From: Cordia subcordata
Lineage: Eukaryota > Streptophyta > Magnoliopsida > Boraginales > Cordiaceae
Length of the DNA: 64,000 bases
NCBI GenBank assembly: GCA_028554755.1
Contig: JAPTOF010000001.1
Span: forward strand, 38,459,501 to 38,523,500
Direction: 5' to 3'
Part shown: one piece after another, positions 10,035-45,333 of the stretch
Layout of the letters: each line of letters starts with the position of its first letter
Position numbering within the stretch: the stretch's first letter is position 1
Made by a program: the position numbers and the translations under genes
Notes under the pieces: model-generated
The model's input: the letters and a program-made list of their open reading frames with translations, nothing else
The model's database searches: none
Told to the model about the DNA's origin: nothing

Positions 10035-10039
10035 AAGCT

Positions 10040-16100: not shown

Positions 16101-16121
16101 ATTAATGAAAGGGAGAAAGAC

Positions 16122-16681: not shown

Positions 16682-16880
16682 TTTTTTTTCTCATTAACGA
16701 AATTCTGTTTTGGACCAAAAAAGGAAAAAAAAGAACCGCCGCTTTAGTAAAACCCAAATTTTGATACTTATTAATTGCCAAAGCACATTGCTAATGGTAG
16801 TAAAAAAAAATGACGCTGTCTTGGAGTCACAAAAACTACGTCGTTTTGTAGCAAACGACGTTGTTTGGGATTTCGTTAAA

Positions 16881-25103: not shown

Positions 25104-25522
25104 ATGGAGGGTAGGTGGGGAGATATGATGGAGATGATGAACAAGCAAGCCGTGATGGACACATTCGTCGACATATTACTGTGTGCGGTGCCGATATGGG
25201 TGGCGGTGATGATAGGGTTAGTGATCGGGTGGTCTTGGAGGCCTAGGTGGACCGGCTTGGTTTTTCTAGGGCTCCGGTCGAGGAAGCTCCGGTTCGTCTG
25301 GACCGTTCCGCCCGGGCTTGGGGCTCGGAGGCTCTGGCTTGCGTTCACGGCGCTCTCGGCTTTCTCTGTGGCTAGGAGATTGTGGTTTAGGTTCTATGGA
25401 AGGGATAGGAAAGCGGAGGAGAGGCCGGCTACGGCAGCGGCGATGGAGAGGGCGGAGACGGCAGCATCGGCTGTGGGTTCGTCTCTAGCGCTGGTGGCTG
25501 AAGGGAGTGCTGGTGATATCAA
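25104..25522 (+). CDS. START gene exon 1: membrane anchor and variable linker
   Basis: Codes for residues 1-139 plus two bases of codon 140. The hydrophobic stretch [20 protein letters not shown] is followed by WSWRPRW, then an arginine-rich, then an alanine-rich part. This exon is clearly more GC-rich than its surroundings. The donor is CAA/GTAGGT. Reading past it meets a TAG at once, which supports the splice site. Confidence 0.85.
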
Positions 25523-28500
25523 GTAGGTTTTGAAATGAAATTTCATGTATATATGTGTGTATGTGTGTTTATGCATATATGTATTTTTGTATCTATAGTT
25601 ATGCAATATGCACCTTGAATTTGCCGTTCTTGAAAGTTTGATGTTTTCAGCTGAACCTCTGCAGCTTCTTAGGGATCTGTGTCTTAATTTTTGGGAATTT
25701 TGGTATTTCTTTTGGTTTAGTTGAATTTTTGATGAAAAGAATGGGAGATGACATTTGTTAATTGCTTGTGAAGGTTTACTTTTTGAAACAAGGAATCGCA
25801 AGTAATAAATTCTTTTTGTTGTCGTGTAATTCATTGTTCTAGTAATTTGAGTTGTGATTTGGGTAATCTTGGTATAGATTGGGTTGTTGTAATTTAGTTG
25901 GCTGAGGGTGGAACAAAGGTGCCCCTAAGATGGTAACTGCCTCACGAATAAGCTTTGAGTGTGTTTTTCGTTTGATATAATTGAGTGCTTTAAAGTCGTC
26001 GGTCAGTTTTCTGTTTGGTGATACTCAACAATGTAGGCTGGTCGATGGAGATTGGTTTAGTTGTCTGTAGCCTTAAGAGCTGCTATCTGAGTAGACTTAC
26101 GTTGTTGAACAAGCGTTATGCGAGGCTGATTAAGTTCGGTTGCTTTGATGAGTTCCCTTTTACTATATGAGGGGGGTTCTCCCATCACCACCCCCATGGG
26201 GATGGTCTATAGGGTTCATAACTACTCCTCTTATTACAGGACGCTTACCTAGCCAACGCTTAGATCCAGCTCTACCCAAACTTTTCTGGTTCACCCCAAC
26301 ATTTCCCATTTGTCTGACTGTTGCTGAGCAATTTTTGGATATCAAATGGACCTCTCTAGAACGTAATTTCAATGTGGACGATTTCCCCTCTTTTGCAATC
26401 AGTTTCGCTACAACATCCGCTGCTCTAGCTAATTGTCCACCCTTTTCCAAGTGTGATTTCTATGTAATGTATGGCCGTGCCTAAGGGCATATCGGTTGAA
26501 GTAGATTCTTCTTTTTGGTCAATCAAAACCCCTTCCCAAACTGTACAAGCTTCTTCTAAAGCATACCGCTTACTGGATGTAGATGATGATATCTACATAG
26601 ATGGATCTTATTGTACAATGAAGTACCACATGGGTGTATATATATATGAATCCTTGCGGATAGATGTCTAGTTTTTGGCTTTTACATATGTCTTCTGTTG
26701 GTTTCAGATTGGTGTGCAAGAACGTTACATATTCTGGTAGCACATTGGGATATGAGGAAATTGCTGAGTACTAGTTGGAAATATATAAAGTTTAAGGTAG
26801 TCAGGAAAAAGTTATTGCTAGGAATCGTTGGACACTTGACACTAACATACATGAACAGGTTAGAGACTTAATGTTAGTGACCACTTCGATTGTGCTACAT
26901 GTTCCAAAGGCATTGCTTCATTTGTTGTTTGGTGGTGCACAACAATGTTGGATTGATTGTTGGAGATAATTGTTTATGTGCATAGACAGTTGAAGTTAGG
27001 ACTATGTTGTTACACAGCAAGCATTAAGCATAAGCAGCTTTATGTTCTTATCAGTAATTCCCACTTCATGCGGCAATAGTAACTGGAATTGATGGTAACA
27101 AATTACTTCTGCCTGTTTCTGCCATAAATTTTTTTGCTATCATTTGGTTCCTAGTATAGCTTACGAATGTGTATTTAGCTCCTGTATTCTACAGCATGTA
27201 ATCAGTTTTTAATTGGTTGATCTATGTGGTGCCTGTGCTGAATTTAATATGTTCGAGGAAAATGGGAACGGGTCATGAATAAACTTGAAAATCAGCTTTG
27301 TTGCAGAAACTCAATTGTGGTGTCCAGCCTCCATCCCCTCTCTCCTCCTGCTTTTGGATGAGATACCGTCAATAGTAGACCTATCCCTTTACTCCCCCTC
27401 TTGATTAATGAATTGGAAAAGCTTTCTGTTGGGTAAGAAAAACTTGTGTATCACTTTCAGCAGGGACTAGCGAAATATATACCACACTTATGCAGCCAAC
27501 AGATAACTACTAATGTCTTAGCTATGATCATATAGAAAGCTAATGTCTTATAGCACGCCCATGGTTGAAGTCAATGCCTTATAACTTGTTTATGGTTGAA
27601 GCCAATGTCTTGTAATTTGTTCATGGTTGAAGTTAATGTCTTATAACTCATTCATGGTTTGATGATAATCTGTATAAGGTCATAGTTAAGGCATATCTAT
27701 ATCTGTGCTGGATGCGACAGTTTACATTTCCTTTTCTGTTTGATTATTATAAGTTTCATTTACATTTCTTTTTCTGTTTGATTATTATAAGTTTCCTATA
27801 ACCATGAACATTTTTTGATTCCAGTCACCTTCCAGCATAAAGTAAATTGAGATCTCTAATTTGCTGAACAATTTTACAATGTCCTAATGTATTATTTGCT
27901 CTCCCACTTTGTGCAGTCTGGTATCGGGAACATCAGAAGCACAAAAAACTGTTGTTACAGAACAAGATCTAGAACATTTATTGCACCTTCTTGATGGTAA
28001 AGATGGGGAAATGACATGGCAAAGTGTGATGGAGCGCTCCACTTCAAATATGTCATACCAAGCTTGGCGCCATGAGGCTGAGGTAAGTTGATCATGAGTT
28101 TTAGATGTGCTTCCATCTTTTATTTATCTAGGTCTCAGAATTGTTACTCTGACCTATGTTTTCATTAGGACCAAAAGAAATGCCATTTTTTCCCTACTGA
28201 TGAGAGTTATTGACCTTGATAAAACTGAAAGACCTTTAAACATCTCGAGTATAGCATTTTTTCCTCTGGAATTTTTAACTGGGTTTAGGTGTGTTATTGG
28301 TAAAACAGTAATACTTACCTATTTTTTGTTTTCTTGTTGTAATTTAAGCTGGTTTTTGCAATTGCTTTCATTGGTTTAAAACTGTATGGTAGATACTTGC
28401 CTGCATCTGGAAACACAATTTTGTTTTTGTCTGGTTAAGGAGGTAGTTCGATGGACTAAATATCAGCACCATGCTCTATATGGATGGGTTTTTTTTCTTT

Positions 28501-31500
28501 TTCTTTTTCTTTTTTTTCATCCTCCCATTTTCTCATTGAAATAGAAAATATTGGCAAAACTAACCTTCTCGCTATCCTTCTCCACATTGGCTACGATAAG
28601 ACAAAGTACTGTGCTCTGGTTGCTAATTTCTCAACTGAGATGTGTTTGAACTGTATGTATTTTACTACGTGAACTGTAGGTATTGTCTTTTAGCTATATG
28701 TTATTGGCAGTTATTGTTTTGATTTTATTTCAATGCAAGAGCCAATATCATGTTGTGGAAGTATATTTGTCTGGGTATTTGTATTATGGTGCATATTGAT
28801 TTTCATTTCACTTAGGCTTCTTCGTAATGGAATATGAAAAGATATGCATTTTTGAAGAATCTTAAAACAGCATGTAGTTTACCATGTGAACTCTAGGTCT
28901 TGCCTTTTAGTTAATAGTTTCCTTGGCCTTTTAGTTAATAGTTTCCTTGGCATTCTGTTTCGATTTCATTTTAATCTAAGCATTCAATACGAAATGGTGA
29001 AATTATTTTTGTCTGGATATTTGTATTATGGCAGTGCATATTGATTTTCATTTCACTTGGGCTTCATCATATGGTAGTGAGAAAAAAAGAAATACACTAA
29101 TGAAGAATCTTTTTATTTTGTATTACATTGCCATTGCCATTGTTGTGTTGAAAGGCGTGGGCGTAGGACCTTTTCCTTTGTTCACTCCCTGATTAGGATT
29201 TGATTATATATTAGATAACATACCAGTGGTTCCATTTCTTTTTGCATATCTCAGATATAGCCTAAAACTTAAGGACTCAACCATGTCCACGGACTGCTGT
29301 GATTTGCGGTCTTATCACCTGGGCCTAGTTGGTATCACAGCCTGTTAGTTATACTAGCAGTTATGAGTATTAACTCAATTTTTATATTGATCAGTATTAT
29401 TTCAATTCATCATTTGTGTGCTCAAATAATTTGAGTATGTCTTCAATACTGTCAACATTTGCAAAAAATCAAAATACTGTGAAAAACAGTAAGAAGGAAG
29501 AATATGAAATTCCAAAAAATTTGGATTTGTTAAATAAATGGACAATCCCTAAAATAGAACCTAGGATGATATATTCCTTTGGTACTTTTGATAAATTAAG
29601 TTTTAAACAAATTGTTAAAACTTGTGAAGAATCTATTCCCATACATAATGAGGAATTGACTATAAAATTACTTAGTCAAGATGATGCATATACATCAGAA
29701 TATAAGTTCTTACATATTGGACTTGTTCAGGTAGCTTTTAAACCTCTTACTTTGTCTGGTTTACCTGAATCATTTTTGACTGTATTACGTGATGCTCGTA
29801 ATATGAACTGGCGTCAATCTCTCATGGGCATAATGGAATCTAGTTTAGCTCATGGTCCTATATATTTTAATGCATATCCGAATTTACAATTATCTTTGTC
29901 GGATGTTAATATTTTAGATGCGTTAACTTTATATGTGAAAACGCATGGTTATAATTATTTGCCAGGTACTAAAGTTATTTGTATCTGTTATAGGGTTTAT
30001 TTTAAGCCTTTGTATACTTTGAATCCAAAGTGTAAGTTGATGAATACAAATCAACAAGAAACAATCATATTTGAAACCAATTTTAATAGATCTAAAATAA
30101 CTACCCGTAGATCTATAAGATGGGATGAAATAAACTTTCCAGAAACATGGTTAGCTGAAAAAATCATTCCAGCGACACCATTAATAAATGAAGATTTGGT
30201 GGATGCTATACAAACATCTACCGGAGATATACAAATTCAGTTTAATAGGAAAAGTACACCAGAATTAGGTAGTACTTCAGGACTAGGAAAATCTAGATAT
30301 TCTAGATCTGGTTCAATCCATTCATATATTTCTCCTATAGATTATAGAATTGATCTACCCAATACTGTAGGGAGATTCTAGATCTGGTTCAATCCATTCA
30401 TATATTTCTCCTATAGATTATAGAATTGATCTACCCAATATTGTAGGGAGTTCATCTTCTAAATCAGAATCTGAAATCCTGCAAAATAAAGTACAGGGAA
30501 TTAAAATTAATGAAGATAATATAGCTCAGGGTGTATATAATAATCCTGAAGAAAATTTTAGACCAGAAATAACTGAGTCAGAATTAAATTTTCCAGTTTA
30601 ATGATGAATCAAAATAAAATTGATTTCAGTCCAGGTAGCCCAGCCAGAAAACAAATACAAGCTGAGTTTCACAAACCAGTATATAAACCTTTCAGAGATT
30701 GGTTTGCTAAAAATATAGATTTAGCAGAAAGAGAAATACTCCAGAATCAGTTCTTTAATCATTTAGAACATAGAAATGAAATAAAAGATTTTATTCCATG
30801 GTTCTTAGAAACCTATCTAGAACAACATATAAATGCTCTAGAAAGAATTTGGAAATTAAAAAATGGAGAACAAGTAGAATCAACTTATCTTCCTACACAT
30901 CAACCGATAATAATGGATAAAGAAAGATTTAAGTTATATGCTAATGCTTCCTTTAATCTGCAAGAGAATGAAACTCTTCCAACCACAACCAAAAATATAA
31001 ATGATGTGGTAAAACAAAATAATTTTACTAATTTATATTTAGTAGCCTTAGGGGAACAAATATTAGTTCTTAATAATAGGTTATTAAAAACATATATGAT
31101 TTTAGAGGAAATAAAAAATTCTCTACAAAATCAAAAAGAAAATTTAGAGGGAAAAAATATTGGAGAAACTTCAAGAATTAAAAGTAATCCAATTCAACCT
31201 TCTCCAGAAATAAAAAATTTTATACTTGAACCAATACATGAATTTGAGAAACTTCTTGATAATAAGTTTAAGACATTAAAATTGAATGTCATAACTAAAG
31301 AAGAAGTACCAGATTTAGTTGATAATATACATCAACAAGAAATTGTTAATGAAACTTTAAATAGAATAAAGAGTAATAATAAATTTGCTCAACAACCGGT
31401 CCAGAAAAAATATTATTATCCTAGACCGACACCTCAAGATGTTTTATTTGAAGAATTACCAAATGAACAAACTTACTATAATGGTAAGACTATTTATGAG

Positions 31501-34500
31501 TGGAATATAGATGGCCATTCAGATCAACAAATTTATAATACCATACATAGAATGATGATGTATGCTACTATTTGTAAACAACATGATAATTCAGATAGAA
31601 ATATTGCTTTAATGATAATAGTAGGGTTCACTGGTCAATTGAAAGGCTGGTGGGAAAACTATCTGAATGAAAATCAAAGACAAACTGTTTTGAATACAAC
31701 AAGAACAGAAAATAATATAGTGAAACAGGAAGCTGTTTACACGTTAACAATAAATATTTGTGAACATTTCACAGGTAGATTTACTATAAATGCTGAGAAT
31801 ATTAGGTCACTAATATTGAATCTCAAGTGTCCTACACTCACCTCATTTAGGTGGTATAAAGATGTATTTCTTAGCAGAGTTATGGAACTACCAGATGCTA
31901 ATCAAGCACATTGGAAGTCTAAGTTTATAGATGGTCTTCCACACCTATTTGCTGAAAGAGTGAAGAAAATTCTTAGAATAGGAATATCACCTATTGATTA
32001 TGATAATCTTACATATGGCATGATAATAGAAAAATGCATGCAAGAAGGTTTAGCTTTATGTAATGAAATTAAGCTGAATCAACAAATTAAAAAGCAAAAT
32101 TTAACAGAGAAGTCTCAATTAGGACAATTCTGTGAACAATTTGGGATTGAAGTAGGTCAATCTAGTAAGCCTAGAAAATATACTAGGTTTTCTAATATAC
32201 AAAAATATACCTCTCCGGTTTATCAGAAGAAAATAAATGCTAGAAAGGAGAGAAAACAAATAAGGAAAAATATTAAAAAACAACAGGGTTATAAGAGAAT
32301 AAGATCAAAATCTTCTAAACCTATTGTTTGTTATAAATGCGGGAGAATTGGTCATATAGCTCCAAAATGTCCTGTAAAAAAGAAGATAAAATCCTTAATT
32401 ATAGATGAAGAAATTAAGGATAGTCTTTTGAAAATAATGATTAATTCGGATTCAGAACAAAATCATTCTGATTCTGATAATTATAACTCAGAAGAATCAA
32501 ATTCTGAGGATAATCTGAAATATTTATCAGAAGAATCTGAAATTATAGAAAGTTCAGATGAAGAGAATAAACCTTGTCAAAATTGTATAAATAAGATACA
32601 AAATGAAGACAATGAAAATTTTTATCAATTGTTATCACAATTCAGAAATATGGAATTGAATGTGTTAACTAATGATAATATCATTGATTTACTCAGAATA
32701 ATAAAAGATTTTGAAATCAGAAATAAAATATTGGAATCTTTAGGAAAAATAAAAGAACCTGAAGAATTAAAAATTTCAGAAGAAGATAAATTCATTCCTT
32801 ACACTTTATCGTAAGTCGGAAAAGGATTGAAGAAAGAAATAATCCAAAATCCTCTATAACATCAGAACTACAATACAGGATATTAAAGAGGAAATTAATA
32901 ATTTGAAAACTGAGATCAAAAGATTAACTCAGGAGAATATAAATATAAATAAAAGACTGGATAATTTGGATAAAGGGAAAAATAAAATTGAATAAATTCC
33001 AGAATCCAGTGAAAATAAAGAATTAGAACCATTTTTAGGAAAGATGGAATATATTACATCTCAAAAATGGTTAGTGAAGATAAATCTCTTAATACAAGGA
33101 GAATTCAGAAAAGAATTAATTGCCTTAATAGATAGCGGGGCAGATCTGAATTGTATACAGGAAGGATTAATTCCTACAAAATATTTTGAGAAAACCACAC
33201 ATACATTATCAAGTGCTAGTGGTAATAAAATGGAAATTTTATATAAATTATCCAAAGCTTATATTTGCACTAATAAACAGTGTATTCCTAACAGTTTTGT
33301 GTTAGTCAGGAATATGACAAATCAAGTCATATTAGGAACACCATTCCTTAATAAAATATTTCCAATAAAAGAAATAACTACTAATGGAATTATAGGTAGT
33401 TTTGAAAAAAATGAAATTCAATTTGAATTTATTAAGGATCCAATAACTAGAGTCCTTAATGAAATGGTTGATTTAATAAAAGCTAAAAATAATCAACTTA
33501 ATTTTCTTAATCAAGAAATTAACTCATTAACTATAAATGAGAAATTACAAAATCCTCAACTTCAACAACATATTAAATTGATAATAACTCAATTTTCGTC
33601 AGACATTTGTGCTGATCATTCTAATGCTTTTTGGGTAGAAAGAAACATATTGTTAGTCTACCATATGTAGATGATTTTGATGAAAGAATGATAACAACAA
33701 AATCTAGAGCAGCTCAAATGAGTAAAGAAGAGCTAGGTAGATGTAGAGAAGAAATAGATACTTTTCTGCAAAAAGGATTAATAAGAAAATCAAATTCACC
33801 TTGGAGTTGTACTGGTTTTTATGTCAATAAAAAATCAGAAATTGAAAGAGGATCTCCAAGATTAGTTGTTAATTATAAACCTCTTAATAAAGTTTTGAAA
33901 TGGATTAGATACCCAATTCCTAATAAAAAGGATTTAATTGATAGGGTGCATGATGCATGTGTATTTTCAAAATTTGATATGAAATCAGGTTACTACCAAA
34001 TACAGGTAGTTGAAGAAGACAGATATAAAACTGCTTTTGTTGTACCATTTGGACATTTTGAATGGAATGTAATGCCATTTGGTTTGAGAAATGCTCCTTC
34101 TGAATTTCAAAATATTATGAATGATATATTTATACCTTATAATGAATTTATGGTTGTTTATATTGATGATGTCTTAGTATTTTCTAAGGACATTAATACC
34201 CATTTTAAACATTTAGAAATATTAAAAAATCTTGTTATTAAAAATGGGTTAGTTGTTTCTAAACCTAAAATGCAGGTTTTCCAATCTAAAATTAGATTTT
34301 TGGGATATAATATAGAAGATGGGAAAATAATTCCTATTGAAAGAAGTATTGAATTTGCTTCTAAATTTTCAGATAAAATTTTGGATAAAAATCAATTGCA
34401 AAGATTTTTAAGCAGTCTTAATTACATTCAGCCTTATTATAATAATTTGGCTATTGATGCTGCTATATTATATGATAGACTAAGGAAATCTCCTTTCCCT

Positions 34501-37500
34501 TGGTCACAAAGTCATACTGAGGCAGTGAGAGTGATTAAATCAAAAGTTAAACAATTGCCTTGTCTTATGCTTGCAAATCTACAATGGTATAAAATTGTGG
34601 AGACAGATGCTTCAGATATTGGATATGGTGGAGTACTCAAACAAGTACAACCTACAACAAAACAAGAATATCTTGTATGTTTTACTTCAGGAAAATGGAG
34701 TGACAGTCAGAAGAAATATGCTACTGTTGCCAAAGAAATTTTAGCTATTGTCAACAGTGTTTTGAAATTTCAAGATGATCTTTTGAATAAAATTTTTTTG
34801 ATCAAAACAGATTGTTAATCTGCAAAATTCATGTTTAATAAAGATTTTAAACATGATGTTTCAAAATATATGTTTGGAAGGTGGCAGACTTATTTAGCCC
34901 CTTTTGATTTTGAAATCAAACATATTCAGGGAAAGAATAATACTTTGCCTGATTTTCTCTCACGCGAATATTTGCAGGGGGATGCAACCTCCTGATGGGG
35001 TTTTTAAGGTCGTCGAAAATATGTCCATGGTGGTTCATCAAGAGGCCGTGGCAAATATAGTCATGGTGGAAAAGGGAGAAATAAAGCTCTAGATTATTTC
35101 CATGCAAATAAAGCATTGGAGATTGCTTCTGAAGAAGCTGAAGTACGTAAAAATATATTGCGTGCTCAGAAGTTTGATATAAAACTTCCTCATCCCAGTT
35201 CACCTATATACTCTGAAACAATAAAGTTTCTTGAGGAACTGGAGAAAAAAACAGAGGAAAGAAATATAAGTTCTTTCGCTTCAGCTCTAAATACTATAGA
35301 GCAAGATGAATCTGTGCAATATACACAGAACTCAGAATAGGAAATAATCCTGTATTTGTCACAAAAGGATCTGACATATAAGCGGGATCCATGGTTGCTG
35401 ATGTCCAAATATCTGGATGAATTCGTTTCACTCAGTCATATAAGACGAGACACCACTTTGAGAAGATTCTTATGGAGACAATGTCTGCAGATTTTGAACA
35501 CTTCAAAAAGAGTGGAAAGGCAGATATGATGTCCAGGGATATTGCTTATAGCAAAATTTTCATCAAGTCACTGATCAATGCTGAACAGTGGGGACTTTCT
35601 ACACATAAATTAAAGTCCTATGTGGTATCAACACAACAAGGTCCAGTATTATATTCTTACTGGGATTATGTTGAAGGATTCTCAAAGGTATTCTATTTTG
35701 AGAATGACCAGCATAAACATTCATGGTTTGTGAAGATAGCTGGTACAGTCCTTGATAAGGATATTCCATCATGGTTTATAATTTGGTGGAATTATTTTGG
35801 TCCGAATTCGTCAATTTTTCCAGAACCATTCAAAGAGTTATATACAAGATGGCTGGAAGTCTCACTAAAAGCGCAGAACCTTGAAGATCAACAATCAGTT
35901 GAAGGAACTGCAACAATGTATTTCTTTCTGGAGTTTTCAATTCCATGGATTGTCAGATGGATTCCAGAAGTTGGTCATACAGATAAGCATGTACCATGTT
36001 TGAAGAGAATATTCTTCACAAAGTTCTGGCACAAGATGATCCAGAAAGATCCTAAAACAAATCAATTACATTCTCAGGATCTTATCAAAGAAATTGAAGA
36101 AAAGCTTCAACAATATAAGAAAGAAGCTAAGGAGAAGCAGAAAGAAACAATTCAACCAAAATCATGGTTTGAACAATTTGTGAATAAGTTGCAGAAGGAT
36201 AATCCTTCCATATCATTGCAGGAAATAATGTTGCAATATATGGATAATGTGAAAGAGGAAATGATCCAATTCACTCAACAAAGTGATTCATCCTCAGAGA
36301 AATCAATGGAGATTTCACCCCAAGGCAGCAGATATTTTTGTCTTGCAGGTCAGTCCTAGGATCCAGAGGAAGAAGAAAACTATTCTTGGATGACGTGTTT
36401 GAATCAATGAAAGATGCGTTGAAGGGACCACTTCAAATAAAGAAGAAGGGAGAATCGTCCCAATCTGATCCTAAACAGGATAAAGTTTAGGTGAAAAAGA
36501 AGAAAGAATAGTGGTTATCATGATGACAGTGGAAAAAGCGGTCGTGATAATTCACTCGAGAACAAAGGAATCTGATGACTCAACAATCGCATGTAAGAGT
36601 CACAGTTGATTAGATAAAATGAACGAGGACAGATGGAAAGAAGAAATTGTCATATAAGGCAAACAGTTTCACTATTCATAGATAGTGGATGTACTGTTTA
36701 TAAACAGTAATTTTACTTTTTACTGTTTGTAATTAGGATGTTTCGCGGATTCAAAATATGTGAAGTCCGTGAAAAGTTGTTTTGAATTTTTGTTTCAAAT
36801 CCGAGGCTTCAATTGTCTATAAAAGCACAAACTCGGATGAGAAGAAAAACAAGAATTTAGGATATATAGTTTTAAGTTTTCAATTTTATATTTTGTAAAA
36901 TTTTAAAGAAGAAATAAAAGTTCAGACTTTTTTCTAGGTATTCTCTTTTTTATTTTTCTTGTCATTTAATTTTATTTTTGCATTGCTTGGACAGTCTAAT
37001 GGAAGACTGATTTGTTGATGAATTGATATAATGCTGGTATAACATAAGAGTTGGTTTAGGCCAATCTTAGACCAAGATGATAACCCTCAAATACTCCGCT
37101 GACATGTTTTAGACTTAAGGGTTATGATATATCTTTGATATTGCCTGGAATTCTGGTTCGAAGTATATGATTGAATCTTAGGAGTGTCCCAGGTCCATTG
37201 CCATTGCCATTGTTGTGTTGAAAGGCGTGGGCGTAGGACTTTTTTCTTTGTTCACTCCCCGATTAGGATTTGATTATATATTAGGTAACATACCAGTGGT
37301 TCCATTTCTTTTTGCATATCTCAGATATAGCCTTTTTGCATATCTCAGATATAGCTTAAAACTTAAGGAGTCAACCATGTCTACGGACTGCTGTGATTTG
37401 CGGTCTTATCACCTGGGCCTAGTTGGTAACTAGGCCCAGGTGATAAGACCGCAAATAAGAGCAGTCCGTGGACATGAATGAATCCTTAAGTTTTAGGTTA

Positions 37501-40500
37501 TATTTGAGATATGCAGAAAGAAATAGAACCACTAGTATGTTATCTAATATACAATCAAATCCTAATCATGGAGTGAACAAAGGAAAAGGTCCTACGCCCA
37601 CGCCTTTCAACACAATAATGGCAACGGCAATGGACCTGGGACACTTCTAAAATTCAATCATATATTTCGAACCAGAATTCCAAGCAATATCAAAGATATA
37701 TCATAACCCTTAAGTCTAAAACGTGTCAGCGGAGTATTTGAGGGTTATCATCTTGGTCTAAGATTAGCCTAAAACAACTCTTATGTTATACCAGCATTAT
37801 AACAATTCATCAACAAATCAGTCTTCCATTAGACTGACCAAGCAATGCAAAAATAAAAATAAATGACAAGAAAATAAAAAGAGAAGGTACCTGGAAAAAA
37901 AACTTCTGAACTTTTATTTTTTTTAAAATTTACAAAATATAAAAAGTGAAAACTAAACTAAGATTTTTCTCCCTTTTCCACCATGACTATATTACTAGGC
38001 CCAGGTGATAAGACCGCAAATCACAGCAGTCCGTGGATATGGTTGAGTCCTTAAGTTTTAGGCTATATTTGAGATATGCAAAAAGAAATGGAACCACTGG
38101 TATGTTACCTAATATATAATCAAATCTTAATCAGGGAGTGAACAAAGGAAAAGGTCTTGCACCCACGCCTTTCAACACAACAATGGCAATGGCAATGGAC
38201 CTGGGACATTCCTAGGATTCAATCATATACTTCGAACCAGAATTCCAGGCAATATCAAAGATATATCATAACCCTTAAGTCTAAAACATGTCAGCGGAGT
38301 ATTTGAGGGTTGTCATCTTGGTCTAAGATTGGCCTAAACCAACTCTTATGTTATACCAGCATTATATCAATTCATCAACAAATCAGTCTTCCATTAGACT
38401 GTCCAAGCAATGCAAAAATAAAATTAAATGACAAGAAAAATAAAAAATAGAATACCTGGAAAAAAGTCTGAACTTTTATTTCTTCTTTAAAATTTTACAA
38501 AATATAAAATTGAAAACTTAAAACTATATATCCTAAATTCTTGTTTTTCTTCTCATCCGAGTTTGTGCTTTTATAGACAATTGAAGCCTCGGATTTGAAA
38601 CAAAAATTCAAAACAACTTTTCACGGACTTCACATATTTTGAATCCGCGAAACATCCTAATTACAAACAGTAAAAAGTAGAATTACTGTTTATGAACAGT
38701 ACATCCACTATCTATGAATAGTGAAACTGTTTGCCTTATATGACAATTTCTTCTTTCCATCTGTCCTCGTTGATTTTATCTAATCAAATGTGACTCTTTT
38801 GTCTGATTGTTGAGTCATCAGATTCCTTTGTTCTCGAGTGAATTATCACGACCGCTTTTTCCACTGTCATCAGGATAACCACTATTCTTTCTTCTTTTTC
38901 ACCTAAACTTTATCCTGTTTAGGATAAGATTGGGACGATTCTCCCTTCTTCTTTATTTGAAGTGGTCCCTTCAACGCATCTTTCATTGATTCAAACACGT
39001 CGTTCAAGGAATAGTTTTCTTCTTCCTCTGGATCCTAGGACTGACCTGCAAAACAAAAATATCTGTTGCCTTGGGGTGAAATCTCCATTGATTTCTCTGA
39101 GGATGAATTACTTTGTTGAGTGAATTGGATCATTTCCTCTTTCACATTATCCATATATTGCAACATTATTTCCTGCAATGATATGGAGGGATTATTCTTC
39201 TGCAATTTATTCACAAATTGTTCAAACCATGATTTTGGTTGAATTGTTACTTTCTGCTTCTCCTTAGCTTCTTTCTTATATTGTTGAAGCTTTTCTTCAA
39301 TTTCTTTGATAAGATCCTGAGAATGTAATTGATTTGTCTTAGGATCTTTCTGGATCATCTTGTGCCAGAACTTTGTGAAGAATATTCTCTTCAAACATGG
39401 TACATGCTTATCTGTATGACCAACTTCTGGAATCCATCTGACAATCCATGGAATTGAAAACTCCAGAAAGAAATACATTGTTGCAGTTCCTTCAACTGAT
39501 TGTTGATCTTCAAGGTTCTGCGCTTTTGGTGAGACTTCCAGCCATCTTGTATATAACTCTTTGAATGGTTCTGGAAGAATTGACGAATTCGGACCAGAAT
39601 AATTCCATCAAATTATAAACCATGATGGAATATCCTTATCAAGGACTGTACCAGCTATCTTCACAAACCATGAATGTTTATGCTGGTTATTCTCAAAATA
39701 GAATACCTTTGAGAATCCTTCAACATACTCCCAGTAAAAATATAATACTGGACCTTGTTGTGTTGATACCACATAGGACTTTAATTTATGTGTAGAAAGT
39801 CCCCACTGTTCAGCATTGATCAGTGACTTGATGAAAATTTTGCTGTAAGCAATATCCCTGGACATCATATCTGCCTTTCCACTCTTTTTGAAGTGTTCAA
39901 AATCTGCAGACATTGTCTCCATAAGAATCTTCTCAAAGTGGTGTCTCGTCTTATATGACTGAGCTGGAAACGAGAATTCATCCAGATATTTGGACATCAA
40001 CAACCATGGATCCTGCTTATATGTCAGATCCTTTTGTGACAAATACAGGATTATTTCCTATTCTGAGTTCTGTGTATATTGCACAGATTCATCTTGCTCT
40101 ATAGTATTTAGAGCTGAAGCGAAAGAACTTATATTTCTTTCCTCTGTTTTTTTCTCCAGTTCTTCAAGAAACTTTATTGTTTCAGAGTATATAGGTGAAC
40201 TGGGATGAGGAAGTTTTATATCAAACTTCTGAGCATGCAATATATTTTTACGTACTTCAGCTTCTTCAGAAGCAATCTCCAATGCTTTATTTGCATGGAA
40301 ATAATCTGGAGCTTTATTTCTCCCTTTTCCACCATGACTATATTTGCCACGGCCTCTTGATGAACCACCATGGACATATTTTCCACGGCCTTGAAAACCC
40401 TCATCAGGAGGTTGCATCCCCCTGCAAATATTCGCGTGAGAGAAAATCAGGCAAAGTATTATGCTTTCCCTGAATATGTTTGATTTCAAAATCAAAAGGG

Positions 40501-43500
40501 GCTAAATAAGTCTGCCACCTTCCAAACATATATTTTGAAACATCATGTGTAAAATCTTTATTAAACATGAATTTTGCAGATTGACAATCTGTTTTGATCA
40601 AAAATTTTTTATTCAAAAGATCATCTTGAAATTTCAAAACACTGTTGACAATAGCTAAAATTTCTTTGGCAACAGTAGCATATTTCTTCTGACTGTCACT
40701 CTATTTTCCTGAAGTAAAACGCACAAGATATTCTTGTTTTGTTGTAGGTTGTACTTGTTTGAGTACTCCACCATATCCAATATCTGAAGCATCTGTCTCC
40801 ACAATTTTATACCATTGTAGATTTGCAAGCATAAGACAAGGCAATTGTTTAACTTTTGATTTAATCACTCTCACTGCCTCAGTATGACTTTGTGACCAAG
40901 GGGAAGGGGATTTCCTTAGTCTATCATATAATATAGCAGCATCAATAGCCAAATTATTATAATAAGGCTGAATGTAATTAAGACTGTCGAAAAATCTTTG
41001 CAATTGATTTTTATCCAAAATTTTATCTGGAAATTTAGAGGCAAATTCAATACTTCTTTCAATAGGAATTATTTTCCTATCTTCTATATTATATCCCAAA
41101 AATCTAATTTTAGATTGGAAAACCTGCATTTTAGGTTTAGAAACAACTAACCCATTTTTAATAACAAGATTTTTTAATATTTCTAAATGTTTAAAATGGG
41201 TATTAATGTCCTTAGAAAATACTAAGACATCATCAATATAAACAACCATAAATTCATTATAAGGTATAAATATATCATTCATAATATTTTGAAATTCGTA
41301 AGAGCATTTCTCAAACCAAATGGCATTACATTCCATTCAAAATGTCCAAATGGTACAACAAAAGCAGTTTTATATCTGTCTTCTTCAACTACCTGTATTT
41401 GGTAGTAACCTGATTTCATATCAAATTTTGAAAATACACATGCATCATGCACCCTATCAATTAAATCCTTTTTATTAGGAATTGGGTATCTAATCCATTT
41501 CAAAAATTTATTAAGAGGTTTATAATTAACAACTAATCTTGGAGATCCTCTTTCAATTTCTGATTTTTTATTGACATAAAAACCAGTACAACTCCAAGGT
41601 GAATTTGATTTTCTTATTAATCCTTTTTGCAGAAAAGTATCTATTTCTTCTCTACATCTACCTAGCTCTTCTTTACTCATTTGAGCTGGTCTAGATTTTG
41701 TTGTTATTATTCTTTCATCAAAATCATCTACATATGGTAGACTAACAATATGTTTCTTTCTACCCCAAAAAGCATTAGGATGATCAGCACAAATGTCTGA
41801 CGAAAATTGAGTTATTATCAATTTAATATGTTGTTGAAGTTGAGGATTTTGTAATTTCTCATTTATAGTTAATGAGTTAATTTCTTGATTAAGAAAATTA
41901 AGTTGATTATTTTTAGCTTTTATTAAATCAACCATTTCATTAAGGACTCTAGTTATTGGATCCTTAATAAATTCAAATTGAATTTCATTTTCTTCAAAAC
42001 TACCTATAATTCCATTATTAGTTATTTCTTTTATTGGAAATATTTTATTAAGGAATGGTGTTCCTAATATGACTTGATTTGTCATATTCCTGACTAACAC
42101 AAAACTGTTAGGAATACACTGTTTATTAGTGCAAATATAAGCTTTGGTTAATTTATATAAAATTTCTATTTTATTACCACTAGCACTTGATAATGTATGT
42201 GTGGTTTTCTCAAAATATTTTGTAGGAATTAATCCTTCCTGTATACAATTCAGATCTGCCCCGCTATCTATGAAGGCAATTAATTCTTTTCTGAATTCTC
42301 CTTGTATTAAGAGATTTATCTTCACTAACCATTTTTGAGATGTAATATATTCCATCTTTTCTAAAAATGGTTCTAATTCTTTATTTTCACTGGATTCTGG
42401 AATTTATTCAATTTTATTTTTCCCTTTATCCAAATTATCCAGTCTTTTATTTATATTTATATTCTCCTGAGTTAATCTTTTGATCTCAGTTTTCAAATTA
42501 TTAATTTCCTCTTTAATATCCTGTATTGTAGTTACAGATGTTATAGAGGATTTTGGATTATTTCTTTCTTCAATCCTTTTTCTGACTTCTGATAAAGTGT
42601 AAGGAATGAATTTATCTTCTTCTGAAATTTTTAATTCTTCAGGTTCTTTTATTTTTCCTAAAGATTCCAATATTTTATTTCTGATTTCAGAATCTTTTAT
42701 TATTCTGAGTAAATCAATGATATTATCATTAGTTAACACATTCAATTCCATATTTCTGAATTGTGATAACAATTGATAAAAATTTTCATTGTCTTCATTT
42801 TGTATCTTATTTATACAATTTTGACAAGGTTTATTCTCTTCATCTGAACTTTCTATAATTTCAGATTCTTCTGATAAATATTTCAGATTATCCTCAGAAT
42901 TTGATTCTTCTGAGTTATAATTATCAGAATCAGAATGATTTTGTTCTGAATCCGAATTAATCATTATTTTCAAAAGACTATCCTTAATTTCTTCATCTAT
43001 AATTAAGGATTTTATCTTCTTTTTTACAGGACACCTCTCCGGTTTATCAGAAGAAAATAAATGCTAGAAAGGAGAGAAAACAAATATGGAAAAATATTAA
43101 AAAACAACAGGGTTATGAGAGAATAAGATTAAAATCTTCTAAACCTATTGTTTGTTATAAATGCGGGAGAATTGGTCATATAGCTCCAAAATGTCCTGTA
43201 AAAAAGAAGATAAAATCCTTAATTATAGATGAAGAAATTAAGGATAGTCTTTTGAAAATAATGATTAATTTGGATTCTTGTTTGAGTACTCCACCATATC
43301 CAATATCTGAAGCATCTGTCTCCACAATTTTATACCATTGTGGATTTGCAAGCATAAGACAAGGCAATTGTTTAACTTTTGATTTAATTACTCTCACTGC
43401 CTCAGTATGACTTTGTGACCAAGGGAAAGGGGATTTCCTCAGTCTATCATATAATATAGCAGCATCAATAGCCAAATTATTATAATAAGGCTGAATGTAA

Positions 43501-45333
43501 TTAAGACTGCCTTATCTTGGGCATATGATGGGGCATGTTCTTTTTAATTTCCATAAAGCTTATCCCATTTTCTAGGTTCTAGGTATAAATTTGTTGTTCG
43601 CTAGGGTTTGAAGTTCACACTAGTTTCTTTTGTGGTGTGCATTTGATTTCTCAGACGGGCCTGATAGTGTACCGTAGTAGAACTGTATTTGAGGATGCAA
43701 CCCCAGAGTTGGTCAGAGATTTCTTTTGGGATGATGAGTTCCGACCAAAATGGGATCCTATGCTTGCTTATGTCAAAATATTGGAGGAACATCCTGATAC
43801 TGGGATGATGATAGTCCGCTGGATAAAAAAGGTATGTCAACTGGAGTAGTCCATTCCTCTTGCATCAATAGTTTCTCGCTTGATGAGAACCTGACTTGTC
43901 CCTGCCGTATGCAGTTCCCCTTTTTCTGCAGTGATCGGGAATATATTATTGGCAGAAGAATATGGGAAACTGGAAGAACGTTTTATTGTGTGACAAAGGT
44001 ACAGAGTTTAATAAGCCTATTCTTGTAAAATCCATTACTATTTATTATGAGTTATTTGACTTTTATTCTCCAGTAATGTTTCAAATTACTTGCTTTCCAA
44101 ATACAGCTCATGAGGTTCTCTAATTTTGGGAATCCATTTGAACTCTTGATATATCTAGATTTGGAGTAGCCCCTTTAATAGATGCATATTTGATCATGTG
44201 CCAATTTTATAATACACAAATTATCTTTTGACACCATGCATTCAATTGCTTAATGTCCTCATGGCTTGTGACACGTGGACTTCTTGATAATTGACAATGC
44301 ACCTTAAAAAATGTAGGGGATACCATATCCTGCTTTGCCAAGGCGTGACAAACCCAGGCGCGTGGACCTTTACTTCTCAAGCTGGATTGTTAGACCTGGT
44401 TAGTGTTAGCACCCAATTTGGTAGCTCTAAGGCTATCTCCAACAGCTCCCCTATTTTTTTCTCTAAATTTAAGTGATTTGAGTCATTTTCTTATAATTTG
44501 GGATTCCCTATTTTCAATTCAACTCCAACAGTTCGCCTATTTTTTATCAAACTCTCATTTTAAGGAATTCCTATTTTAGTTTTACTCCAATAGTTATTTT
44601 ATTTTAAAATATTACAGTCTTAAAGCTATTGGGAATAGGGGATGGGATTTGGGTTTTGGCTTTAGGGGATGAAAAAAACCCTTATATATGAGTGTTTTGT
44701 TTTGGGGTTTTGAAAAAACTCAAATTTTGGGGTGTGAGATAGGGGAGCTGTTGGAGAGCATTAGAACCAATCACTCCCCTAAATATGGGGTTTTTTTATA
44801 TTTAAGGTTGCTGTTGGAGTAAGCCTAATATAAGTTTTGTGGCTGGATCTAATTGCTTCTGCATTTGCAAAATGAATTCAGTGCAATCACTGAAAGGGGA
44901 CGGACAGTTGTCAGCATGTGAAGTCGTGCTCATCCACTATGAAGATATGGGGATCCCTAAGGATGTGGCTAAGTTGGGCGTACGACATGGGATGTGGGGA
45001 ACCGTCAAGAAGTTGCATGCCGGCTTTAGAGCCTATCAGAATGCAAGGAAAACTGAGGAATTGCTCTCTAGATGTGCACAGATGGCGGAAATCACCACCA
45101 AAATTTCATTTGGTGAAGGCTCCGATTGTGTGGAGCCAATAGCCATGCAAGAAGAGAGAGGCGAGAATCTAAACGTCCAACAACAACAAGGCAACGGTGG
45201 AATTGACTGGAAATGGCTAGTCGTTGGTGGAACCGTGGCTTTGGTGTGTGGTTTTCATGCAGGAGTTGTAGGAAAAGCCTTGTTGTTCGGAGCGGGGCAA
45301 AGACTTGCTAGAAGACAGAGGGTTTCAAGATGA
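25104..45333 (+). CDS. START-domain lipid-transfer-like membrane protein (whole gene, six coding exons)
   Basis: Coding exons are 25104-25522, 27917-28082, 43655-43831, 43915-43998, 44317-44398 and 44882-45333. All five introns are GT..AG and the frame is continuous, giving 459 residues. The order is: N-terminal hydrophobic segment (about residues 22-45), basic/alanine-rich linker, START domain (about 150-385) and C-terminal hydrophobic segment (about 421-442). START domains form a cavity that binds a lipid or sterol. This subgroup in plants (StAR-related/PCTP-like, the Arabidopsis At4g14500/At3g23080 type) is membrane-anchored, with no firmly established ligand to my knowledge. Diagnostic stretches are [58 protein letters not shown] and [20 protein letters not shown]. 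The ATG at 25104 is chosen because it opens the hydrophobic N-terminus. Intron 1 holds plastid DNA, intron 2 is about 15.6 kb of mainly viral DNA, and intron 5 is mostly a MITE. No coding break was seen. Confidence 0.9.
26168..26665 (-). pseudogene. rpl2: Nuclear plastid DNA insert: rpl2 exon 2 part and intron end
   Basis: On the - strand, 26450 down to about 26168 reads as plastid ribosomal protein L2: [40 protein letters not shown] and [20 protein letters not shown], ending near HPHGGGDGR. It continues on the 5' side through [10 protein letters not shown] (26470-26495) into the end of the plastid rpl2 group II intron. The domain V-like stem (AGCGGTATGC facing GCTTGTACAGTTT) lies at about 26537-26570. 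Substitutions such as SREVH for the usual SGEVR and a local frame shift near 26450 show it is not maintained. Plastid L2 works in plastid ribosomes, so this truncated nuclear fragment in intron 1 of the START gene is non-functional. The right boundary is uncertain (26580-26665). Confidence 0.9.
27540..27795. repeat. Short tandem repeats in START intron 1
   Basis: At about 27540-27660 a unit of roughly 34 bp (AATGTCTTATAACT..TTCATGGTTGAAG) recurs about four times with differences. At about 27719-27795 a 37-bp unit (TTACATTTC.TTTTCTGTTTG) is duplicated almost perfectly. Confidence 0.75.
27917..28082 (+). CDS. START gene exon 2
   Basis: Completes codon 140 and codes to residue 195 ([20 protein letters not shown] to [10 protein letters not shown]), the lead-in to the START domain. 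The acceptor is TTTGTGCAG and the donor GAG/GTAAGT, in phase 0 with exon 3 more than 15 kb away. Confidence 0.88.
28660..29113. repeat. Diverged tandem duplication of about 217 bp in START intron 2
   Basis: Copy 1 (from about 28662) and copy 2 (from about 28880) share GTGAACT(G/C)TAGGT(A/C)TTG, TTTGTATTATGG and ATATTGATTTTCATTTCACTT in order. Copy 2 also has an internal 25-bp duplication (CCTTTTAGTTAATAGTTTCC). The pair directly abuts the viral insertion. Confidence 0.7.
29330..29347 (+). promoter_or_regulatory. Primer-binding site for initiator tRNA-Met
   Basis: TGGTATCACAGCCTG closely matches the TGGTATCAGAGC complement of the plant initiator tRNA-Met 3' end, where Caulimoviridae start minus-strand DNA synthesis. 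It lies upstream of the first viral frame. Confidence 0.8.
29437..30381 (+). pseudogene. Viral movement protein, frameshifted near its 3' end
   Basis: The frame from the first ATG gives 314 residues. The central part (for example [16 protein letters not shown] and [16 protein letters not shown]) has the character of the 30K-type movement proteins of Caulimoviridae, which carry virus through plasmodesmata. A GTG-started extension upstream is not needed. A 76-bp tandem duplication at 30301-30452 shifts the frame and ends the protein early at 30381. The following sequence, read in the shifted frame, stays open to about 30601, where its stop overlaps the capsid start. This overlap indicates the original arrangement of adjoining frames. 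Family call is by architecture and position. Confidence 0.75.
30301..30452 (+). repeat. 76-bp tandem duplication inside the movement-protein frame
   Basis: Two almost identical units beginning TCTAGATCTGGTTCAATCC start at 30301 and 30377. The period (76) is not a multiple of three, so it breaks the frame. Only about one substitution (ACTGTAGG against ATTGTAGG) separates them, so it happened late. Confidence 0.9.
30601..32814 (+). pseudogene. Viral capsid (coat) protein with zinc knuckle, prematurely stopped
   Basis: The 737-residue frame has a capsid/Gag-like central region (for example [16 protein letters not shown]). Near residue 578 is a CX2CX4HX4C zinc knuckle ([14 protein letters not shown]), the nucleic-acid-binding hallmark of pararetroviral coat proteins. 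A serine/aspartate/glutamate-rich acidic stretch and a short CQNC pair follow. Basic lysine/arginine-rich sequence precedes the knuckle. The stop at 32812-32814 is specific to this copy: the inverted copy stays open for a further coiled-coil-like tail, and here that tail has an additional one-base loss near 32863. The start codon overlaps the stop of the preceding frame. It packages viral DNA in the family; here it is a fossil. Confidence 0.8.
33044..34995 (+). pseudogene. Viral polymerase: aspartic protease, reverse transcriptase and RNase H, broken
   Basis: The first part (33044 to about 33640) has the protease signature [10 protein letters not shown]. The second (to about 34500) has reverse transcriptase motifs including [21 protein letters not shown] and the catalytic YIDDVLVFS. 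The third has RNase H ([11 protein letters not shown]) and runs to a TGA at 34993-34995. Two breaks are visible: one base lost in a G-run near 33632, separating protease from reverse transcriptase, and an in-frame TAA at 34816-34818 within RNase H where the inverted copy has a glutamine codon. In the family this enzyme copies pregenomic RNA into DNA in the cytoplasm. No integrase domain follows. Confidence 0.88.
34982..36490 (+). pseudogene. Last viral frame, role unknown (transactivator position)
   Basis: An ATG at 34982 overlaps the polymerase stop. In this copy a frame shift follows within about 20 bases. After it come an RG/GG-rich part, a helical part (35116-35340) ending in TAG, a larger block (35472-36359) with aromatic stretches such as [19 protein letters not shown] and a lysine/glutamate-rich helical tail, another TAG, and a short lysine-rich end. 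I do not recognise a domain. By position it corresponds to the inclusion-body/transactivator gene at the 3' end of several Caulimoviridae genomes, but homology is not shown. About four bases are also missing near 35430 relative to the inverted copy. Both internal TAG codons are shared with the inverted copy. Confidence 0.6.
36818..36825 (+). promoter_or_regulatory. Viral pregenomic promoter TATA box
   Basis: TATAAAAG sits in the long non-coding region after the last frame, in the position of the 35S-type promoter. Transcription would start near 36850. Confidence 0.65.
36913..36918 (+). terminator. Viral poly(A) signal
   Basis: AATAAA about 65 bp after the expected start fits the Caulimoviridae layout, where the signal is bypassed near the promoter and used after a full circuit. 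In this intron it could also cause early polyadenylation of the host transcript. Confidence 0.5.
37410..37440. repeat. Tail-to-tail palindromic junction of viral copies
   Basis: CACCTGGGCCTAGTT, the three bases GGT, then AACTAGGCCCAGGTG form a perfect inverted repeat. The axis falls on the first bases of the viral primer-binding site. Confidence 0.9.
37428..37994 (-). mobile_element. Inverted viral leader fragment with small filler
   Basis: On the - strand this matches the forward copy from the primer-binding-site edge back to about 36870 (terminal repeat, leader and poly(A) region). About 30 bp at 37961-37993 match forward 35055-35085 instead (start of the last frame), before the next inverted copy begins at CTAGGCCCAGGTG. 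Confidence 0.8.
38568..38575 (-). promoter_or_regulatory. Promoter TATA box of the inverted viral copy
   Basis: The reverse complement reads TATAAAAG in the same context as in the forward copy. It points antisense to the host gene. Confidence 0.55.
39035..40417 (-). pseudogene. Last viral frame, inverted copy
   Basis: The ATG at 40417 overlaps the polymerase stop. The N-terminal part is intact here and reads RG-rich ([20 protein letters not shown]), an RGG-box-like composition that suggests RNA binding. The frame stops at a TAG (40058) at the same position as in the forward copy. It then reopens as 40042-39608, stops at a TGA where the forward copy has a tryptophan codon, and continues 39478-39035 to a second shared TAG. 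Function is unknown. Confidence 0.6.
40404..42355 (-). pseudogene. Viral polymerase, inverted copy, broken
   Basis: Protease (DSGADLNC) and the first reverse transcriptase motifs are fused in one frame, 42355-41279. A one-base loss near 41300 shifts the frame. The YIDDVLVFS motif and the connection/RNase H start lie in 41336-40701, ending at a TAG where the forward copy has a tryptophan codon. RNase H continues in 40637-40404. Unlike the forward copy, the protease/reverse transcriptase boundary is open here, which shows they were one polyprotein. Confidence 0.85.
42404..43028 (-). pseudogene. C-terminal part of the viral capsid protein, inverted copy
   Basis: The acidic Ser/Asp/Glu stretch, CQNCINK and a Lys/Glu-rich helical tail ([17 protein letters not shown]) run to a stop at 42404. 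This shows the natural capsid end, which is cut short in the forward copy. The zinc knuckle is just missing at the 43028 breakpoint. Confidence 0.75.
43028..43279 (+). mobile_element. Re-inverted capsid fragment with zinc knuckle
   Basis: This matches the forward copy at about 32212-32457, including the CX2CX4HX4C knuckle. Its last about 85 bp repeat, in opposite orientation, the end of the neighbouring inverted copy (42945-43030), so they form a hairpin with a loop of about 165 bp. Confidence 0.85.
43279..43509 (-). mobile_element. Second inverted reverse transcriptase/RNase H fragment
   Basis: This matches the inverted copy at about 40753-40986 (frame with [20 protein letters not shown] and [11 protein letters not shown]). 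It ends where host intron sequence resumes, about 145 bp before START exon 3. Confidence 0.85.
43655..45333 (+). CDS. START gene exons 3-6: lipid-binding domain and C-terminal anchor
   Basis: Exon 3 (43655-43831, 59 codons), exon 4 (43915-43998, 28 codons), exon 5 (44317-44398) and exon 6 (44882-45333) carry the conserved START core and the C-terminal hydrophobic segment ([19 protein letters not shown]). All junctions keep the frame: the exon 3 acceptor is TTTCTCAG and the exon 5/6 junction splits a valine codon. Stop is TGA at 45331-45333. These exons are downstream of the viral cluster and show no decay, which suggests splicing across it still works. Confidence 0.9.
44431..44825. mobile_element. 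MITE with TAA target duplication in START intron 5
   Basis: Termini GGCTATCTCCAACAGC and (reverse complement) GGCTTACTCCAACAGC are flanked by TAA on both sides (44428-44430 and 44826-44828). A 3-bp TAA duplication and this terminus type fit PIF/Harbinger (Tourist-like) MITEs. Internal ACTCCAACAG copies suggest a compound element. It makes up about 395 of the 483 bp of intron 5. Confidence 0.8.

What the first reader, a model, noticed from the sequence alone, without database searches (positions are those of the whole stretch)
29129..43509. Long viral near-palindrome inside an intron of a host gene
The forward Caulimoviridae copy and the truncated inverted copy share arms of about 5 kb with a spacer of about 0.57 kb, all within intron 2 of a START gene whose exons remain in frame. 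Transcription of the host gene would produce an RNA able to fold into a long virus-derived hairpin, a plausible source of 21-24-nt siRNAs against related viruses. The viral promoters also face each other. The arrangement is seen directly; the siRNA role is inference.
Basis: partly seen in the sequence, partly recalled or inferred. Interest (0 to 1): 0.9.

Follow-up and report, generated by a model that had tools for sequence, protein, structure and literature searches.

The report
Virus-made hairpin inside a plant gene
An intron of a plant lipid-transfer-type gene holds two mirror-image copies of an old DNA virus, and the gene's transcript would likely fold there into a 5-kb hairpin predicted to feed the plant's RNA-silencing defence against that virus family.

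Summary
Intron 2 (28083-43654) of a six-exon START-domain gene carries a 14.4-kb Caulimoviridae insert (29126-43510). Forward copy A (29126-37428) and inverted copy C (37994-43033) pair over 5,029 columns with 87 substitutions. The 570-nt spacer is mostly a third inverted piece, B, from a more divergent variant.

Two additions. First, the arrangement recurs in this 472-Mb genome: 24 of 42 promoter-end places have an opposite-strand place within 17 kb, and in the 6 pairs compared the mates are each other's closest relatives. Second, of those 6 pairs only this one shows strand-biased decay: 52 transitions fit C>T or A>G on the host coding strand, 10 the reverse (p=6e-8). Transition/transversion ratios favour mutation on a transcribed strand over selection for pairing. 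This is indirect evidence that the germ line transcribes both arms.

siRNA output and antiviral effect remain untested. Inverted-repeat viral siRNA loci are already described in tomato and soybean, so this is a new variant of a known kind: intronic, likely host-promoter-driven, with a strand-specific footprint. A test in copy A's unpaired part did not show the bias (little power).

The parts
25104..28082 (+). host START-domain gene, predicted exons 1-2 (25104-25522, 27917-28082)
   Evidence: joined open frame of 459 aa; homologues up to 73% or 75% identical
28083..43654 (+). intron 2 of the host gene, GT-AG, containing the whole viral insert
   Evidence: splice positions; frame stays open across it; 27900-29125 has one match in the genome
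43655..45333 (+). host START-domain gene, predicted exons 3-6
29126..37428 (+). copy A: forward caulimovirid copy with about 204-nt terminal redundancy (29126-29329 ~ 37196-37423), running from the predicted pregenomic RNA start to the tRNA primer site; polymerase region interrupted, 76-nt tandem duplication at the end of the movement-protein gene
32368..37423 (+). left arm of the hairpin (part of copy A)
   Evidence: 5,029 aligned columns with C, 87 substitutions
37429..37960 (-). fragment B: inverted promoter-end piece from a different viral variant; forms most of the spacer
   Evidence: 90.4% to A, 91.3% to L011
37961..37993 (.). 33-nt filler between B and C
37994..43033 (-). copy C: truncated inverted copy, right arm of the hairpin
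43033..43277 (+). fragment D: forward copy of 32209-32453
   Evidence: 98.4%
43277..43510 (-). fragment E: inverted copy of 34412-34645
   Evidence: 98.3%
29330..29341 (+). tRNA-Met primer-binding-site motif (name and consensus recalled); A ends, and B and C begin, within 5 nt of this point of the viral genome
37163..37176 (+). predicted TATA context of copy A, about 33 nt before the predicted RNA start at 37196-37197
   Evidence: prediction only
38217..38229 (-). matching TATA context of copy C, facing that of A (B has one at 37652-37664)
   Evidence: prediction only
29416..30381 (+). movement protein ORF (PF01107)
30601..32814 (+). coat-protein ORF (DUF7588, DUF7746, Caulimovir_coat_dom, CCHC knuckle)
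33044..34818 (+). protease (33044-33670) and RT-RNase H (33631-34818), in two frames in copy A
35472..36359 (+). fourth large ORF, transactivator-like by position only; no Pfam match

Best explanation
A head-to-head pair of decayed caulimovirid copies lies in intron 2 of a START-domain gene with an open reading frame, is likely transcribed with that gene from its promoter, and its RNA is predicted to fold into a 5-kb hairpin that would be diced into siRNAs against the other copies and relatives of the virus. Shown: the anatomy, the near-identity of the arms, the open host frame, the recurrence of such pairs in this genome, and a coding-strand substitution bias found in this pair alone of six compared. 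Inferred: that the bias records germ-line transcription; that several linear viral DNAs with ends at the primer-binding site were joined and captured in one break; that the hairpin is diced, probably mainly to 22-nt siRNAs by a DCL2-type enzyme as described for tomato and soybean; and that the siRNAs act in trans.
For: Arms: 5,029 columns, 87 substitutions; strong predicted duplex. Host frame open and conserved. A and C are each other's nearest relatives (97.4% in 35950-37428; next 91.2%), so they entered together or by local copying. Strand bias: 52 transitions fit C>T/A>G on the + (host coding) strand in both arms, 10 the reverse, p=5.7e-8. Polarised with 28 (35950-37428) and 23 (34450-35949) other copies: C>T 32 v G>A 6, A>G 10 v T>C 1 (tests). 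In the segment 35950-37428 this pair gives 25:4 and five other inverted pairs 24:17, 9:4, 15:20, 11:10, 20:14, each p>0.26 (pooled p=0.42). Facing viral promoters would bias arm A the other way, so they do not explain it. ts/tv is 2.48 here v 2.62 in controls: mutational asymmetry fits (p=0.82), symmetric mutation with hairpin selection does not (p=0.0008). CG sites are enriched among the plus-class changes (10 of 52 v 74 of 1,553, p=2e-4), as methylated DNA would give. Trans potential: 902 of 1,953 distinct 22-mers of the two arms in 35950-37428 match at least one of 28 other copies exactly.
Against: No RNA data of any kind. In copy A's unpaired part (29329-31900) private transitions are not biased: 10 v 10 with the strict rule and 14 v 21 with the looser one, the first 1,046 columns leaning the other way (1 v 6 and 2 v 9; 1 v 7). 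About 62% plus was expected after dilution by older changes, P=0.18 for the strict count, so this does not confirm the bias and does not exclude it. The bias rises toward the palindrome centre while transversions stay flat, which uniform transcription does not predict. The gene setting of the five control pairs was not determined. C>T/A>G on + are also exactly the changes that keep G.U pairs in the + RNA, so selection may contribute. Viral AATAAA motifs inside the insert (42 on the + strand) could end transcripts before both arms are made.
Confidence: 0.55

Rival explanations
1. Inert fossil: the palindrome is methylated, spliced out with the intron and makes no meaningful siRNA; it is a neutral integration scar.
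For: Arm differences in the RT ORF are 13 nonsynonymous v 5 synonymous, i.e. neutral decay; both copies have a polymerase region that is not open throughout; CG-enriched C>T suggests methylation; about 9% of grape florendovirus loci overlap genes, 99% of those in introns (PMC4241990, passages).
Against: Long inverted viral repeats are reported to give siRNAs in tomato and soybean (PMC10377300; PMC6256188); the strand bias suggests transcription.
Confidence: 0.3
2. Selection for hairpin pairing: the excess of G.U-preserving differences reflects purifying selection on the RNA stem, i.e. a domesticated antiviral locus.
For: 52 of 87 differences keep a G.U pair in the + strand RNA but only 10 would in a - strand RNA; five other pairs show no such excess; no bias in A's unpaired part.
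Against: Transversions break pairs too, yet are not depleted: 10 pair-breaking transitions to 25 transversions v 72:55 from controls, p=0.004; model fit p=0.0008 (control ratio taken as exact).
Confidence: 0.1
3. Silencing in cis or from the viral promoters: dsRNA comes from the facing viral promoters and mainly directs methylation of the insert and dampening of the START gene.
For: TATA contexts face each other at 37163(+) and 38229(-); transcripts from each would be antisense to the opposite arm.
Against: Transcription from C's promoter through A would put the biased strand on - in A; A shows C>T 17 v G>A 2 on + (sum). The promoters are predictions only.
Confidence: 0.2
4. Assembly artefact of a chimeric palindromic read.
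For: Long inverted repeats are a known artefact of some long-read libraries (recalled).
Against: 1.7% divergence between arms, variant B between them, extra fragments D and E, no mirrored host flank; the same sort of pair at five other loci with locus-specific identity.
Confidence: 0.03

Closest known systems
Transcriptionally competent siRNA areas (TSAs): rearranged inverted-repeat pararetroviruses of tomato (Valli et al. 2023, msac240; not held, seen only through PMC10377300 section 16 and passages of PMC12904150)
   Same: endogenous caulimovirid copies rearranged into inverted repeats; predicted hairpin RNA
   Different: siRNAs not measured here; here the repeat sits in an intron of a protein-coding gene and carries a coding-strand substitution bias; whether any TSA is intronic I could not check
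Soybean cucumber mosaic virus RNA1 inverted repeat (Da Fonseca et al. 2016; seen as passages of PMC6256188)
   Same: near-complete viral inverted repeat (3.4 kb) with a 0.5-kb spacer; 22-nt siRNAs reported there
   Different: RNA virus, described as just downstream of a Copia LTR promoter; spacer of plant origin, here mostly viral
Caulimovirid loci in introns, such as grape florendoviruses (PMC4241990, passages)
   Same: viral DNA tolerated in introns
   Different: the passages seen do not describe inverted twins; the word 'inverted' has no occurrence in that text
Rearranged banana streak virus loci (eBSV; PMC10377300 passages)
   Same: viral fragments duplicated in the same and opposite directions
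   Different: badnavirus with copies described as replication-competent; here neither copy has an open polymerase region
Intron-hairpin siRNA loci ('sirtrons', meaning recalled; one search listed three papers using the word, none read)
   Same: hairpin within an intron of a host gene
   Different: arms here are viral and about 5 kb long

Membership tests
Caulimoviridae (endogenous) | movement protein | tested here: met
   PF01107 E 2.3e-13; 193 homologues at E<=1e-3
Caulimoviridae (endogenous) | coat protein with CCHC knuckle | tested here: met
   PF22909 E 1.3e-7 and PF00098 E 3.6e-5
Caulimoviridae (endogenous) | aspartic protease, RT and tethered RNase H | tested here: met
   PF00077, PF00078, PF17919, PF17917; best PDB match 8r0s, 'Enzymatic polyprotein'
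Caulimoviridae (endogenous) | tRNA-Met primer-binding site at the genome's conventional start (motif recalled) | tested here: met
   motif at 29330
Caulimoviridae (endogenous) | no integrase | tested here: inconclusive
   none in the 6 ORFs scanned of 14 listed
Genus Solendovirus or another named genus | RT phylogeny with named reference viruses | not tested
   the 120 RT hits listed of 669 carry plant, metagenome or no names; no reference-virus tree built
Inverted-repeat EPRV siRNA locus (TSA type) | rearranged pararetrovirus in inverted-repeat form | tested here: met
Inverted-repeat EPRV siRNA locus (TSA type) | transcribed through both arms | tested here: inconclusive
   coding-strand substitution bias but none in the unpaired part
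Inverted-repeat EPRV siRNA locus (TSA type) | dense 22-nt siRNAs, DCL2-dependent | not testable with these tools
   no small-RNA data
Inverted-repeat EPRV siRNA locus (TSA type) | silences matching transcripts in trans | not testable with these tools
   only sequence potential: 902 of 1,953 22-mers match other copies

The most novel reading that the evidence does not exclude
A constitutive host gene has become the driver of a heritable viral memory: its intron carries a 5-kb virus-derived hairpin that is read in the germ line every generation, leaving a strand-specific mutational scar in both arms, and it supplies siRNAs that hold the genome's other copies of the virus, and incoming relatives, in check.
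Probability: 0.3. Interest if true: 0.85.

Novelty: new variant of a known kind. Interest (0 to 1): 0.62.

Why it matters
Whether endogenous plant viruses protect their hosts is a long-standing question. A hairpin tied to an ordinary host promoter makes it testable at one locus: host-gene transcription, siRNAs and silencing should rise and fall together. Inverted twins also offer a self-contained way to read transcription-linked mutation from a single genome, because each site is present in both orientations; here that test singled out this pair among six, though the gene setting of the other five is unknown.

Tried and rejected
Replication-strand bias: not excluded, but five other inverted pairs show no bias in either direction. 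Inverted repeats elsewhere in the window as controls: 0 of 8 biased, but these are old repeats whose differences may predate insertion, so little weight. Pure selection for RNA pairing: disfavoured. Polarising with the insert's own spare copies pointed the same way (C>T 17, G>A 2, A>G 7, T>C 3 on +, B left out), but its sets overlap, so it is not counted. Polarising with RT homologues: 13 nonsynonymous sites read, mixed picture, not used. Base composition: host introns are richer in T than A and in G than C on +, which fits transcription but also ordinary plant introns, so not used. Viral-contig search with the RT ORF: nothing confirmed. A first twin comparison was wrong because loci on the minus strand were not turned; redone. 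One search failed on file names. Upstream flanks: 25 of 30 kept, L013, L016, L017, L025 and L029 dropped before counting, so of the five control pairs only two had both mates there: C34 11.77 Mb 10:17 (p=0.25), and C34 5.73 Mb, whose stretches align at only 80% and are not true twins there (70:60); this pair gave 19:4. Private-change scan of single copies: none of the 8 copies (29129-30374) or 30 copies (35950-37428) significant alone. Paralogues of the START protein: search did not complete. Genus of the virus and species of the host: not settled; the best START homologues (73-75% identical) include asterids such as Davidia and Ilex.

Not-in-print check: the 10 library searches (open-licence PMC papers only; the listings were cut to 25, 12 and 12 rows) listed no paper that I recognised from title or abstract start as an intronic inverted-repeat pararetrovirus. 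Valli et al. 2023 and Jia et al. 2020 themselves were not held, so I cannot say whether they include intronic cases.

Full report
What is there. The window lies at C1:38459501-38523500 of a 472-Mb, 62-contig genome of an unnamed eudicot, probably an asterid by its START homologues. A START-domain gene on the + strand has six predicted exons that join to a 459-aa open frame; it aligns with six plant homologues over nearly its whole length at 67-75% identity. Its intron 2, 28083-43654, contains 14,385 bp of viral DNA, 29126-43510; without it the intron would be about 1.2 kb. The stretch 27900-29125 has one match in the genome, itself.

The viral insert. Copy A carries movement protein, coat protein, protease, RT and RNase H domains and a fourth ORF without a Pfam match. 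Protease and RT lie in two frames in A, and C has its own breaks, so neither copy has an open polymerase region. Copy A runs from the predicted start of the viral RNA (29126; TATA context about 33 nt upstream of the equivalent point 37196) to the tRNA primer site at 37428, with about 204 nt present at both ends. B and C both begin at the nucleotide next to that primer site. D and E are further fragments. A review notes that caulimovirid DNA keeps a discontinuity on the minus strand at this site (PMC5902531, passages). The simplest reading (inference) is that several linear viral DNAs, open at the reverse-transcription start, were end-joined head to head and captured in one break. B came from another variant: it is 90-91% identical to A and its private changes are strand-balanced (C>T 7, G>A 8).

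It recurs. With 35950-37428 as query, the genome gave 45 rows, of which I used 42 (fragment B itself and two short pieces left out); only 40 of 458 candidates were scored, so counts are lower bounds. 24 of those 42 places, the window's own two included, have an opposite-strand place within 17 kb. In the six pairs whose loci were at hand the mates are each other's nearest neighbours, at 96.2-98.8%, the next copy at 95.2% or less; other pairs in the list were not compared. Of the 30 best copies, by my reading of the rows, 17 break within about 20 nt of the primer site (10 of them next to another viral fragment, 7 of those inverted), 12 run across it (one of these, L023, for only about 20 nt) and 1 is ambiguous; the query ended there and best-scoring copies were chosen, which favours copies intact to that point.

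The hairpin. Arms A and C: 5,029 columns, 87 substitutions, 4,622 of 4,942 identical bases in perfect runs of 21 or more. Seven 300-nt pieces pair at -450 to -540 kcal/mol; shuffled partners give -62 to -95 and the two self-folds together -99 to -149. The 1,473 central nt fold mainly as one long stem of A with C; the innermost 90 nt or so of A pair with the adjoining end of B instead, and the rest of B and the filler lie in a branched loop. The arms were not folded as a whole.

A strand-specific footprint. If arms decay independently with no strand preference, a T in A against a C in C (viral sense) should be as common as the reverse. It is not: T/C 28 and G/A 24 against C/T 5 and A/G 5. Because C is inverted, both excesses mean the same thing on the chromosome: C>T (or A>G) on the window + strand, the coding strand of the START gene. 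Polarised by other copies: C>T 32 v G>A 6 and A>G 10 v T>C 1 over 34450-37428 (sums and tests). In the segment 35950-37428 this pair gives 25:4, and the five other inverted pairs 24:17, 9:4, 15:20, 11:10 and 20:14. Whether those five lie in genes was not determined. Transcription exposes the coding strand to deamination and directs repair to the template; a review describes this for human genes and strand asymmetry in other organisms (PMC10030826, passages); the listing (12 of 29 papers) showed no plant nuclear test that I recognised. Transcription from the facing viral promoters would give the wrong sign in arm A.

Pairing or mutation? The same changes are those that keep G.U pairs in the + RNA, so selection on the stem is a rival. 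It should also remove transversions, which it has not: 52/10/25 fits mutational asymmetry with the controls' ts/tv (p=0.82) and not symmetric mutation plus selection (p=0.0008, which treats the control ratio as exact; Fisher p=0.004). Two results do not fit neatly. A's unpaired part, 29329-31900, shows 10:10 among strict private transitions and 14:21 with a looser rule, where about 62% plus was expected (P=0.18 for the strict count). And plus-class changes rise toward the centre (7, 17, 28) while transversions are flat (7, 8, 10). CG context is enriched, which fits methylation.

Age and decay. K2P between the arms is 0.0175: about 1.3 million years at 7e-9 per site per year, 0.6 at 1.5e-8 (rates recalled; host unknown). 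RT-ORF differences are 13 nonsynonymous to 5 synonymous, as expected of neutral decay.

Compared with what is known. A review describes tomato caulimovirid loci in inverted-repeat form with dense 22-nt sRNAs, soybean parallels, and trans silencing (PMC10377300 section 16, that section read in full). Another describes a soybean virus inverted repeat of 3.4 kb with a 0.5-kb spacer giving mainly 22-nt siRNAs (PMC6256188, passages). Intronic caulimovirids are known in grape (PMC4241990, passages). What I did not find described in the 10 searches is the combination: location in the intron of a host gene, locus-specific inverted twins recurring in one genome, and the strand footprint.

Trans potential. 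In 35950-37428 the two arms offer 1,953 distinct 22-mers; 902 match at least one of 28 other copies exactly, the median copy sharing 182.5.

Verdict. Observation confirmed; hairpin capacity strongly predicted; host-driven transcription indirectly supported; siRNA and immunity untested.

Noticed in passing
host genome G000, C4:10442579-10493741 (outside the window): Array in which opposite-strand virus places about 3.62 kb apart repeat about every 12.45 kb, a possible tandem array of palindromic units (coordinates).
   Followed up: no
29330 and the ends of 30 related copies: The tRNA primer site is a frequent break point: 17 of 30 best copies break within about 20 nt of it, 7 of them next to an inverted viral fragment.
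   Followed up: partly
32368-37423 v 37994-43033: Plus-class transitions rise toward the palindrome centre (7, 17, 28 in thirds) while transversions stay flat (7, 8, 10).
   Followed up: partly
30296-30447: 76-nt tandem duplication at the end of the movement-protein ORF of copy A.
   Followed up: no
44428-44829: Intron 5 of the START gene holds a repeat of about 400 bp; 39 other places at 85-93% identity were listed, 40 of 853 candidates scored.
   Followed up: no
16102-16697, 21926-22385, 1850-2149, 9881-10035: Self-palindromic repeats, 70-77% self-complementary, perhaps small DNA transposons.
   Followed up: partly
proteins P0253 and P0338: Close RT relatives labelled as from an archaeal and a Flavobacterium metagenome-assembled genome, possibly plant pararetrovirus contamination of those assemblies.
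   Followed up: no
59007-59234: 114-bp tandem duplication, 98% identical.
   Followed up: no
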